A stretch of 64,000 bases of DNA. Source: Bifidobacterium breve. GTDB taxonomy: Bacteria > Actinomycetota > Thermoleophilia > Solirubrobacterales > Solirubrobacteraceae. The DNA lies in assembly GCA_945889475.1 (NCBI GenBank), contig CAMDBT010000003.1:1-64000 (forward strand), in the 5' to 3' direction. The translations under genes and the position numbers were made by a program. The notes below the pieces were generated by a model. The model saw nothing but the letters and a program-made list of their open reading frames with translations, was not told the DNA's origin and did no database searches. This document shows positions 17,487 to 21,490 of the stretch, one piece after another; position 1 is the first letter of the stretch, and each line of letters opens with the position of its first letter.

Positions 17487-18896
17487 GTGGCTGACGAGCG
17501 TTTTGAGGATCACCTGCGCCATCCGCGTGGGCAGGGCGACGTGCCAAGCGGCGCGCACTGCGGCGTCGCCGGGGGCGCGGCCTGCGGTGATCTGGTGCGG
17601 ATCGCGATTCGCGTTGAGGGCGACCACGTAGCAGAGGCCAGCTTCGCCGCATCCGGCTGCGGCGCCGCGAGTGCCGCAGCTAGCGCGGCGATCGAGCTGG
17701 TAACTGGAGCTGCGGTGTTGGAGGCGGCCAAGATCGGCACGCGAACCGTCGACGAACAGCTCGGCGGGCTCAGCGCGGGCAAGATTCACGCCGCCGAGTT
17801 GGCCGCCGACGCGTTGGCGCGTGCGCTGGGAGGAGCTGTCGCAGCTGACGCGCAGCTGCGGTTGGCCCCGGGCCGAGTCCTCGTTGCGATGAGTGGAGGC
17901 GTTGATAGCGCTGTCGCGGCTCAGCTCTGCGCTGAGGCGTCCGACGAGCCTCCGGTCGCGGTGACGCTCGAGCTCTGGCGCGATCAGCAAAACGACGCTG
18001 ATGGAAGCTGCTGCTCGGCGAGCGCGGTCCAACGAGCCCGCTCGCTCGCCCACAGCCTCGGGCTCGCTCACCTGACGCTCGATCTGCGCGAGGCCTTCCG
18101 TGCCGGGGTCGTCGAGCCATGGATAGCCGGGCACGCAGCCGGAAAGACGCCGAACCCGTGTGTGCGCTGCAACGGTGCCGTTCGGCTCGACGCGATGCTT
18201 GAACTGGCCGCTCGTGTCGGAGCGGCGGAGCTAGCGACCGGCCACTACGCGCGCGTTGGCGACGATGGCCTGCTGCGGGCCGCCGCTGATGCCGCCAAGG
18301 ATCAGTCCTACATGCTCGCGGCGCTGGCTCCCGAATCTCTTGCGCGGATGCGTTTCCCGCTCGGCGAGATGACGAAACCGCAGGTGCGCCAACTGGCAGC
18401 CGACGCCGATCTTGCTGTTGCACAGACCCCCGATTCGCAGGATCTTTGCTTTCTCGCCGGAACCGCGAGCGGCGCCTTCCTAGCCAGGCACGGAGGAATC
18501 GGCGAGCGCCCGGGGCCGATCCTCGACCTTAGCGGCACGAAAGTCGGCAGCCACCGCGGCGCTCATGGCTTCACCGTCGGTCAGCGACGTGGCCTTGAGA
18601 TTGGCGGTGTCGCTGAGCCGCTTTACGTAGCGGCAACCGACGCCGAAGCCAACACGGTCACCGTCGGGACGCGCGATCAGCTCCATCGCAGCGAGGTCGC
18701 GTTGACCGATCTGAAGCTCTACCGCCCGGCCGAGAGCGTCGATCAGGCGAGGCTTCGCTCGCACGCACCGGCGCTCGAATGTCGGCTCAACGGAGAGGTG
18801 CTGGAGCTGAAGAAGGGCGCATGGGCTCCAGCTCCGGGGCAGACTGCGGTGCTGTTGAGTGGCGATCGCGTCGTCGGATGCGCCACAATCGCCTGA
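17487..18896 (+). CDS. mnmA: IscU/NifU-like scaffold domain fused to tRNA 2-thiouridylase MnmA
   Basis: N-term HLRHPRGQG...GGAACGDLVRI...ASGCGAASAAASA...KIHAAELAADAL (IscU-like) followed by SGGVDSAVAAQL, NPCVRCNGAVR, TGHYARV, KDQSYMLAAL, DSQDLCFL (MnmA). Confidence 0.93.
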   Translation: MADERFEDHLRHPRGQGDVPSGAHCGVAGGAACGDLVRIAIRVEGDHVAEASFAASGCGAASAAASAAIELVTGAAVLEAAKIGTRTVDEQLGGLSAGKIHAAELAADALARALGGAVAADAQLRLAPGRVLVAMSGGVDSAVAAQLCAEASDEPPVAVTLELWRDQQNDADGSCCSASAVQRARSLAHSLGLAHLTLDLREAFRAGVVEPWIAGHAAGKTPNPCVRCNGAVRLDAMLELAARVGAAELATGHYARVGDDGLLRAAADAAKDQSYMLAALAPESLARMRFPLGEMTKPQVRQLAADADLAVAQTPDSQDLCFLAGTASGAFLARHGGIGERPGPILDLSGTKVGSHRGAHGFTVGQRRGLEIGGVAEPLYVAATDAEANTVTVGTRDQLHRSEVALTDLKLYRPAESVDQARLRSHAPALECRLNGEVLELKKGAWAPAPGQTAVLLSGDRVVGCATIA

Positions 18897-21490
18897 TGCC
18901 GGCGCGCAGCTCAGACGAGATCCGTTCCACCTTCCTCGAATTCTTCGAGCGCAATGGCCACACGTTGCGCCCGTCGGGTTCGCTCGTTCCAGCCGCTTAC
19001 GATTCCTCGGTGCTGCTGACGACGGCGGGCATGCACCCTTTGAAGGAGTACTTCATGGGGCTCGAGACGCCACCGTCGGCGAAGCTGGCGAGCTGCCAGA
19101 AGTGCTTCCGAACGACCGATATTGAGAACGTCGGAAATACCGCACGCCACCTCACCTTCTTCGAGATGCTCGGCAATTTTTCGCTCGGCGACTACTTCAA
19201 AGAGGGTGCGATCGAGCTGGCCTGGGCGCTCTCGCTCGAAGGCTTCGGCTTCGATGCCGAGAGCATCTGGATCACGGTCTTCGAAGGAGACAAGGAGCTT
19301 GGCCTCGGCGCCGACGAGGAGGCAATCGCAGCCTGGGAGGCGGTCGGTGTAGCGCGTGAACGGATCATTCTCTGCCCCCGCTCAGAGAACTTCTGGCAGG
19401 CCGGTCCGACCGGCCCCTGTGGCCCGTGCAGCGAGCTTTACCTCGACCGCGGCGAGCAGTATGGGTCGGCCGACGATCTTCCCGGCGGCGACAATGACCG
19501 CTTCCTTGAGTATTGGAATCTGGTCTTCATGGAGTTCGATCAGAATCAGCAGGGCGTAATCACGCCGCTGCCGGCGAAGAACATCGACACCGGTGCCGGG
19601 CTAAATCGGCTAGCGCTGATCGAGCAGGGGGTCGCGAGTGTCTTTGAGACCGACCAGTTCGCCGGTCTGATGACGCTCGGCCGCGAGCTCGCTGGCGCAG
19701 AGGCCGACGTTCGTGCGTTGCGGATTCTGGCCGACCATTCGCGCGCGATGACCTTCCTGATTGGCGACGGCGTCGTTCCGTCGAACGAGGACCGCGGCTA
19801 CATCCTGCGCCGCGTGATGCGCCGCGCCGTGCTCCAAGGCAAGCGAATCGGGATCGAAGGGCCGTTCCTACCTGCGTTTGCCGAGCAGGTGATCGGTTCG
19901 ATGGGGGCGGCATACCCGGAACTCATAGAACGTCGCAAGACGATTCTCGAATGGGTTCGTGGTGAGGAGGAGAGCTTTGGCCGCACGTTGGTCCAAGGCA
20001 GCGGCCTGCTGGAAGAGCTGTTTGCCGCCGGCACGCTCAGCGGCGACGACGCCTTCCTTCTCCACGATACCTTCGGCTTTCCGATCGAGCTGACCCGCGA
20101 ACTGGCCGAAGAACGCGGCGTGCCGTTCGCCGAGCAAGAGCAGTTTGACCGCCTGATGGCCGAGCAGCGCACGCGCTCGGCGGCAGGAGCGGGATCGCGC
20201 GAGGTTGGCGTTTCGGCGGAAGCGGTTCGCGCCGTTGGCGGTGATCAGGTGCGCTTCGTTGGGTTTGAAGCGCTGAGCGTGCGGACGAACGTCGCCGCCG
20301 TCGCCGAAGCGGATGGCCGCACACTGGTGAAGCTCGCCGAATCCCCGTTCTACGCTGAAGGTGGAGGGCAGGCAGCTGACACCGGAGCGCTGCTCTCGCC
20401 CGACGGCGAGCGGCTTGCTGATGTGGTCGGCGTAATTCGCGCCGGCGACGATCAGGCGCTGATCGTCGAGCAATCGAACGGAACGCTCGACGCTGGGGCT
20501 GAGGTCGTCGCCGAGGTCGATGCGATCAACCGGCATGCCACGGAGTGCAACCACACCGCAACCCATCTGCTTCACGCAGCGCTGCGCGAGCGGCTCGGCG
20601 ACCACGTCCGCCAGGCTGGCTCCTACGTAGGCCCTGACAAGCTCCGCTTCGACTTCAACCATTCGGCGCGTCTTAGCGACGAAGATCGTCAAGCGGTCGA
20701 AGATCAGGTCAACGAGCGAATCCTTCAAAGCCTCAGTGTTCGAGCACTGACGACAACAATCGACGAGGCCCAGCGGCTCGGAGCGATGGCGCTTTTCGGC
20801 GAGAAATACGGCGACGTAGTGCGGATGGTCGAGATTGGCGACGGCAGCTTTTCGCGCGAACTCTGCGGTGGCACGCACGTCGCGCGGACCTCGGAGATCG
20901 CCTGCCTGAAGATCATCAGCGAAGGCTCAAGCGCCGCCAACGTGCGCCGAATTGAGGCCGTCACCGGACCCGTCGCGGTCGCTCTGCTGCGCCGCAACGA
21001 CGCCCTGGTGAGCGAGGCAGCCGGAGCATTGAAAACAACTCCCGACCAGCTTCCTGCTGCTCTCGCCAAGCTGCAAGAAGCTGCGCGAAGCGCAGCCGGC
21101 GCGGCAACGGCGAGCATTGACGAGCAGCAGCTCGCAGCGTCGGCCAGGGATCTTGGCGACGCGAAGTTGCTTGTCGCTGACGTCGGCGGCGTTCCGGCCA
21201 CGGAGCTGATGGACGTCGCCGACAGGCTCAAGGCAAGGCTCGGGGATTCGGCCGCGGTGGTTGTCGGCAGCGTCGTCGACGGGCGCGTCTCGCTCGTCGT
21301 CGCCGTCACCCCGGCTCTCGTAGAGCGAGGCGTGAAGGCTGGCGATGTTGTCGCTGCAGCGGCGACGCTCGTCGGCGGCGGAGGAGGAGGGCGCGACACG
21401 ATCGCGCAGGCGGGCGGAGGGGAGCCTGAGAAACTCGACCAGGCGCTCGCGCTGGCCGCGAAGATGGTCGAAGAGGCACTCGGCTCGTAG
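18896..21490 (+). CDS. alaS: alanine--tRNA ligase
   Basis: MPARSSDEIRSTFLEFFERNGHTLRPSGSLVP, TTAGMHPLKEYFMG, CGGTHVARTSEI; ATG overlaps mnmA TGA (TGATG). Confidence 0.97.
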   Translation: MPARSSDEIRSTFLEFFERNGHTLRPSGSLVPAAYDSSVLLTTAGMHPLKEYFMGLETPPSAKLASCQKCFRTTDIENVGNTARHLTFFEMLGNFSLGDYFKEGAIELAWALSLEGFGFDAESIWITVFEGDKELGLGADEEAIAAWEAVGVARERIILCPRSENFWQAGPTGPCGPCSELYLDRGEQYGSADDLPGGDNDRFLEYWNLVFMEFDQNQQGVITPLPAKNIDTGAGLNRLALIEQGVASVFETDQFAGLMTLGRELAGAEADVRALRILADHSRAMTFLIGDGVVPSNEDRGYILRRVMRRAVLQGKRIGIEGPFLPAFAEQVIGSMGAAYPELIERRKTILEWVRGEEESFGRTLVQGSGLLEELFAAGTLSGDDAFLLHDTFGFPIELTRELAEERGVPFAEQEQFDRLMAEQRTRSAAGAGSREVGVSAEAVRAVGGDQVRFVGFEALSVRTNVAAVAEADGRTLVKLAESPFYAEGGGQAADTGALLSPDGERLADVVGVIRAGDDQALIVEQSNGTLDAGAEVVAEVDAINRHATECNHTATHLLHAALRERLGDHVRQAGSYVGPDKLRFDFNHSARLSDEDRQAVEDQVNERILQSLSVRALTTTIDEAQRLGAMALFGEKYGDVVRMVEIGDGSFSRELCGGTHVARTSEIACLKIISEGSSAANVRRIEAVTGPVAVALLRRNDALVSEAAGALKTTPDQLPAALAKLQEAARSAAGAATASIDEQQLAASARDLGDAKLLVADVGGVPATELMDVADRLKARLGDSAAVVVGSVVDGRVSLVVAVTPALVERGVKAGDVVAAAATLVGGGGGGRDTIAQAGGGEPEKLDQALALAAKMVEEALGS

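What the first reader, a model, noticed from the sequence alone, without database searches (positions are those of the whole stretch)
17487..18896. IscU/NifU-like scaffold domain fused to MnmA, with the third ligand Cys replaced
The first ~125 aa (HLRHPRGQG...GGAACGDLVRI...FAASGCGAASAAASA...LSAGKIHAAELAADALARAL) align by eye to the IscU/SufU fold, and the rest is canonical MnmA with PP-loop SGGVDS and catalytic NPCVRCN. Two IscU Cys positions (CGD and SGC) remain, but the third, usually K-[IL]-H-C, reads KIHA. This suggests a dedicated sulfur or Fe-S delivery module built into the tRNA 2-thiolation enzyme, repurposed away from ordinary three-Cys cluster assembly. No cysteine desulfurase gene is adjacent.
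Basis: partly seen in the sequence, partly recalled or inferred. Interest (0 to 1): 0.72.

Follow-up and report, generated by a model that had tools for sequence, protein, structure and literature searches.

The report
Scaffold domain welded to tRNA thiolase
Across a whole class of soil and freshwater actinobacteria the enzyme that puts sulfur on the tRNA wobble base carries a built-in copy of an iron-sulfur assembly protein that has lost part of its cluster-building site but keeps one cysteine almost everywhere, which suggests it now hands sulfur to the enzyme rather than building clusters.

Summary
Window 17487-18896 (+) is one 469-aa ORF, NifU_N/IscU (residues 7-114) fused to MnmA (130-468). 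It is not a frameshift artefact: the fusion occurs at the same aspS-mnmA-alaS locus throughout the class. The third IscU cysteine (KIHA) is lost in every sequence of the own order.

The fuller picture goes beyond the finding. Unfused relatives form a nifS-nifU-mnmA gene trio. After fusion, none of 181 fused domains keeps both His101 and Cys102, whereas 41 of 42 stand-alone NifU-type scaffolds keep both. Most fused domains keep one of the two plus Cys33, Asp35 and Cys58, a four-residue metal site as in the zinc sulfurtransferase SufU. Cys33, the equivalent of SufU's persulfide acceptor, is the only invariant column of the domain in a 53-sequence alignment. One family lost all these residues and shrank the domain. 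All fused enzymes examined in the class have Cys-rich C-type MnmA.

Own-genus genomes have one cysteine desulfurase (SufS, beside SufU) and no TusA. Best reading: a built-in SufU-like sulfur carrier made from an IscU scaffold, with Fe-S delivery less likely. Nothing is biochemically tested. I found no paper describing the fusion in the held library.

The parts
17487..18896 (+). nifU-mnmA fusion gene, 469 aa, GTG start
   Evidence: orthologues at the same place in relatives
17487..17852 (+). NifU_N/IscU-like domain, residues 1-122 (Pfam match 7-114; AF2 helix 2-11, three strands, helices to 121)
17583..17585 (+). Cys33 codon (IscU first Cys; SufU Cys41 / Mtb SufU Cys40 / ISCU2 Cys69); only invariant column of the N-domain
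17589..17591 (+). Asp35 codon (ISCU2 Asp71)
17658..17660 (+). Cys58 codon (IscU second Cys; ISCU2 Cys95)
17787..17792 (+). His101-Ala102 codons, the former His-Cys pair (ISCU2 His137-Cys138)
17853..17873 (+). short linker, residues 123-129
   Evidence: helix 100-121, then strand 127-134
17874..18893 (+). C-type MnmA (tRNA 2-thiouridine(34) synthase), residues 130-469, Cys175/176, Cys225/228, Cys321
18894..18898 (+). TGATG: stop of the fusion overlaps an ATG that fits the alaS start (MPARSSDEIRSTFLEFFERNGH...)

Best explanation
The gene encodes tRNA 2-thiouridine(34) synthase MnmA with a built-in sulfur carrier. The carrier is a former IscU/NifU scaffold, fused after living beside mnmA in a nifS-nifU-mnmA trio. 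It no longer has the five-residue site used to build [2Fe-2S] clusters. It keeps a four-residue site (Cys33, Asp35, Cys58, His101) that probably holds Zn2+ or Fe2+ and guards Cys33, as in SufU. A cysteine desulfurase (in this genus the only strong candidate is SufS) docks on the domain and puts a persulfide on Cys33. The sulfur then passes to the Cys225/Cys228/Cys321 centre of MnmA, as a cysteine persulfide or onto a [4Fe-4S] cluster held there, and attacks adenylated U34. Shown here: the fusion, its spread, the ligand states, the gene neighbourhoods, the predicted fold and the desulfurase and TusA inventory. Inferred: metal binding, persulfide on Cys33, docking of SufS and transfer to MnmA.
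For: Cys33 is the only invariant N-domain column in 53 fused sequences, and is present in 170 of 170 in the class (f7 excluded) plus family f23. f9 keeps Cys33 alone (sites such as CASAA). None of 181 fused domains has both His101 and Cys102; 41 of 42 stand-alone NifU-type scaffolds have both, and 7 of 7 SufU rows have Cys without His. Known chemistry: in ISCU2 the lost residue (Cys138) is the persulfide acceptor while Cys69, Asp71, Cys95 and His137 bind Fe (PMC11021402); in SufU Cys40/41 accepts sulfur and zinc is required (PMC10216065). Own-genus genomes have one strong desulfurase, SufS, carrying a His 19 residues before the active Cys, the spacing of Mtb His354-Cys373 that serves SufU, and no TusA. 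f10, f11 and f23 have a NifS/IscS-like gene directly upstream. The N-domain is under purifying selection.
Against: No biochemistry. f7 keeps a shrunken domain without the ligand cysteines, so persulfide transfer cannot be its role there, and TusA is present in only a few f7 genomes and does not obviously replace it. The domain is IscU-type, whereas its supposed partner here is SufS, which normally serves SufU; a stand-alone SufU is also present.
Confidence: 0.5

Rival explanations
1. Docking or structural module: the domain's common role is to hold MnmA to the desulfurase (or to tRNA or to a second MnmA), and the cysteines are a lineage-dependent extra.
For: f7 retains a roughly 60-75 aa remnant with no ligand cysteine, at the same aspS-alaS locus, homologous to the other fused domains (HHalign 97%, shuffled controls at most 1.7%) and with dN/dS below 0.4. 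Domain placement is predicted with confidence (pTM 0.92 and 0.89).
Against: A pure docking role does not explain why Cys33 is invariant in every other family of the class and in f23.
Confidence: 0.27
2. Built-in Fe-S scaffold: the domain assembles a cluster and inserts it into the CxxC-C centre of MnmA.
For: C-type MnmA holds a [4Fe-4S] cluster in Thermus (Shigi 2020 as reported in PMC8584467). The domain derives from an IscU/NifU scaffold, and its gene ancestor probably sat beside nifS and mnmA.
Against: 0 of 181 keep the complete assembly site. f9 and f7 have lost two to all cysteines while their MnmA cysteines stay invariant.
Confidence: 0.15
3. Vestigial passenger domain in decay, with no function.
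For: Step-wise loss of ligands and shrinkage in f7, f9 and f16.
Against: Purifying selection on the domain (dN/dS 0.05-0.16 within the genus), an invariant Cys33, and retention across the class.
Confidence: 0.05

Closest known systems
nifS-nifU-mnmA (iscS-iscU-trmU) gene cluster of Clostridia
   Same: Same three activities side by side; annotated in Monoglobus pectinilyticus and jointly induced in Clostridium perfringens cpe1783-1786 (PMC2940859). Also seen here as separate genes in families f6 and f29.
   Different: Separate genes with an intact five-residue IscU site; here nifU and mnmA are one gene and the site is reduced.
SufU zinc-dependent sulfurtransferase
   Same: Four-residue site, Cys33 equivalent to Cys40/41, likely partner SufS.
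   Different: By sequence an IscU/NifU-type domain (80.5 vs 41.3 bits); fourth residue is His, not Cys; covalently joined to its acceptor enzyme.
IscU/ISCU2/NifU_N scaffold
   Same: Fold (A. fulgidus IscU 4eb5 is the best IscU-type structural and sequence match) and four of five assembly-site residues.
   Different: The ISC-type persulfide-accepting cysteine (ISCU2 Cys138) is replaced by Ala.
C-type (CC-CxxC-C) MnmA, e.g. Thermus thermophilus
   Same: All five class-defining cysteines, invariant here.
   Different: Carries the extra N-terminal domain.
TusABCDE sulfur relay of E. coli; YrvO of B. subtilis
   Same: Ways of feeding persulfide sulfur to MnmA (PMC11784392, PMC8300815).
   Different: Unrelated proteins in trans; no TusA in the own genus.

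Membership tests
NifU_N / IscU fold | Profile match over most of the domain | tested here: met
   82.2 bits, profile positions 7-117 of 127; Foldseek to IscU structures with target-normalised TM up to 0.87
IscU-type Fe-S scaffold | Five-residue assembly site Cys-Asp-Cys-His-Cys | tested here: not met
   Site reads C-D-C-H-A; 0 of 181 fused domains have both His and Cys
IscU-type Fe-S scaffold | Assembles and donates a cluster | not testable with these tools
   Needs spectroscopy
SufU | Match to the SufU model above its cut-off | tested here: not met
   41.3 bits against a cut-off of 92.5
SufU | Acceptor Cys40/41 equivalent within a four-residue metal site | tested here: met
   Cys33, Asp35, Cys58, His101; fourth residue His instead of Cys
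SufU | Zinc binding and persulfide acceptance from SufS | not testable with these tools
   Needs ICP-MS and persulfidation assays
MnmA (tRNA 2-thiouridine(34) synthase) | Equivalog match, PP-loop and catalytic cysteines | tested here: met
   320.7 bits against a cut-off of 284; SGGVDS, Cys228 and Cys321 invariant
C-type MnmA | CC-CxxC-C motif set | tested here: met
   Cys175, 176, 225, 228, 321 invariant in all families of the class examined, f7 included
C-type MnmA | [4Fe-4S] cluster | not testable with these tools
   Shown for Thermus, as cited in PMC8584467
nifS-nifU-mnmA gene cluster | Desulfurase gene adjacent | tested here: not met
   Not in the window; present in f10, f11, f23 and f6 relatives

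The most novel reading that the evidence does not exclude
Fusion to MnmA has, more than once independently, turned a five-ligand IscU cluster scaffold into a four-ligand, SufU-like carrier (keeping either His or Cys as the fourth residue), creating a covalent desulfurase-to-tRNA sulfur channel in which Cys33 is the obligatory carrier and SufS feeds tRNA thiolation directly.
Probability: 0.38. Interest if true: 0.75.

Novelty: new variant of a known kind. Interest (0 to 1): 0.6.

Why it matters
How C-type MnmA gets its sulfur, and whether MnmA works through a persulfide or a [4Fe-4S] cluster, is disputed even for E. coli (PMC11784392). Here evolution tied the sulfur-handling partner to the enzyme and then removed its parts one by one, so related natural proteins with four, one or no ligand residues can be compared in one assay. 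It also gives a natural experiment on what separates a cluster scaffold from a sulfur carrier: the His-Cys pair.

Tried and rejected
Frameshift or assembly artefact: rejected, since independent assemblies show the open fusion. SufU origin: rejected by profile scores. Idea that third-Cys loss follows loss of the adjacent nifS: rejected, because f23 has nifS adjacent yet reads KEHA/KEHG. TusA replacing the domain in f7: not supported, only five f7 genomes are among those with TusA. One fusion event for all fused proteins: rejected by AU test, p 0.004; one event for the class plus f23 is not rejected, p 0.29. An attempt to align own SufS to PDB chains failed on coordinates and was replaced by counting residues on the printed sequence. 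Literature: no held paper contains MnmA, NifU and 'fused' or NifU, thiouridylase and 'fusion'; of three with MnmA and NifU I searched one (PMC8300815) and found no mention of a fusion in the passages shown. The Shigi 2020 paper is not held. Domain-architecture databases such as InterPro could not be consulted.

Full report
Observation. Window 17487-18896 (+) is a single 469-codon frame starting with GTG. hmmscan gives Pfam NifU_N at residues 7-114 (82.2 bits, cut-off 22) and MnmA at 130-468 (NCBIfam 320.7 bits, cut-off 284). The N-domain scores best against clostridial NifU (80.5 bits), then NifU/IscU (about 62), and poorly against SufU (41.3). The MnmA part carries the CC-CxxC-C set (Cys175, 176, 225, 228, 321) of C-type MnmA as defined by Shigi (PMC11784392). 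The stop TGA overlaps an ATG that fits the alaS start. The gene sits between hisS-aspS and alaS-ruvX, and aspS and/or alaS flank it in most families of the class.

Spread. The genome search and contig search returned the same fusion in all 19 nearest relatives, one of them cut by a contig end. In a sample of 249 genomes of the class, long fused frames occur in families f1-f5 and f8-f11. Family f7 has a shorter N-terminal extension, and f6 has separate nifS, nifU and mnmA genes. In the wider phylum, f23 is fused with a NifS-like gene directly upstream, f29 has the three separate genes, and f16, f55 and f73 are fused outside the aspS-alaS context (f73's short contig was not part of that neighbour count). 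An MnmA tree with AU tests does not reject one fusion for the class plus f23 (p 0.29) and rejects one fusion for all (p 0.004). Outside the phylum, Monoglobus (Clostridia) shows annotated nifS, nifU and mnmA as neighbours, and the same order is described in Clostridium perfringens (PMC2940859). So the fusion most likely came from such a trio.

Ligand states. I aligned 181 fused and 49 stand-alone domains; some species and loci are present twice, so rows are not all independent. The five IscU assembly-site positions are, in window numbering, Cys33, Asp35, Cys58, His101 and 102. Stand-alone NifU-type scaffolds: 41 of 42 read C-D-C-H-C; the exception (L180, C-D-C-H-A) is a split gene within the fused family f23. 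Stand-alone SufU: 7 of 7 rows read C-D-C-K-C. Fused: f1-f5 and f23 read C-D-C-H-(A/G/V); f10, f11, f55 and six of ten f8 read C-D-C-x-C; f9 reads C-(A/V)-S-x-(A/S); f16 and f73 vary, and the single f34 row is too degenerate to align reliably. No fused sequence has both His and Cys. Cys33 is the only invariant column of the domain in the 53-sequence alignment. In f7 the domain is cut to about 60-75 residues without the ligand cysteines. HHalign still links it to the other fused domains at 97% (30 shuffled controls at most 1.7%), and AF2 keeps three strands and the C-terminal helix.

Fold. AF2 on the 53-row alignment gives mean pLDDT 94.7 and pTM 0.92. Foldseek finds MnmA structures for the C-terminal part and IscU structures for the N-terminal part; A. 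fulgidus IscU from the IscS-IscU complex is the best IscU-type match, as it is by sequence. In the model Cys33 lies in the turn between strands 24-29 and 36-45, where SufU carries its mobile acceptor cysteine.

Sulfur supply. All six genomes searched from the genus, up to 99% complete, have one strong cysteine-desulfurase match, a SufS; in the own genome it lies beside SufU. TusA is absent from all six. Own SufS has a His 19 residues before its active Cys, the spacing of Mtb His354-Cys373, which opens SufU for persulfide transfer (PMC10216065).

Mechanism. In human ISCU2 the equivalent of position 102 (Cys138) accepts persulfide, while Cys69, Asp71, Cys95 and His137 bind iron in free ISCU2 (PMC11021402). 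The fused protein has therefore lost the ISC-type acceptor and kept the metal site. SufU, with four ligands, uses the Cys33 equivalent as acceptor. The most economical reading is a carrier: desulfurase persulfide to Cys33, then to the MnmA cysteine or cluster centre, then to adenylated U34. The fusion, ligand states and inventory are shown; the chemistry is inferred. f7 shows that some non-chemical role, perhaps docking, can persist without the cysteines, which is why confidence is 0.5. Within-genus dN/dS of the domain is 0.05-0.16, close to that of MnmA, though synonymous sites are near saturation.

Verdict. The finding is confirmed and widened: not an oddity of one genome but a class-wide, progressively reduced scaffold-enzyme fusion. 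It is a new variant of known parts.

Noticed in passing
L135-L144 (family f7 mnmA loci): The NifU-like domain of MnmA has shrunk to about 60-75 aa with no ligand cysteines, yet stays attached and conserved (GLTLLEAAAVGGE...DALA.ALG); function unknown.
   Followed up: partly
L180 (G310:C12:66100-72500): Within the fused family f23, nifU and mnmA are separate ORFs but the NifU still reads KEHA; either a later split or a pre-fusion state.
   Followed up: no
L118 (G010:C129:7000-13300): An f8 fusion gene interrupted by an in-frame TAG in the MnmA part; sequencing error or pseudogene.
   Followed up: no
L190-L196 (family f16): Fused, degenerate NifU-MnmA with PP-loop SGGIDS and variable first cysteine, away from the aspS-alaS neighbourhood; an apparently independent fusion.
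   Followed up: partly
L034, L040 (family f8): Stand-alone NifU proteins of 282-298 aa continue into an extension with VC[ED]CFGVT, possibly a BFD-like [2Fe-2S] domain; also near a NifS-like gene.
   Followed up: no
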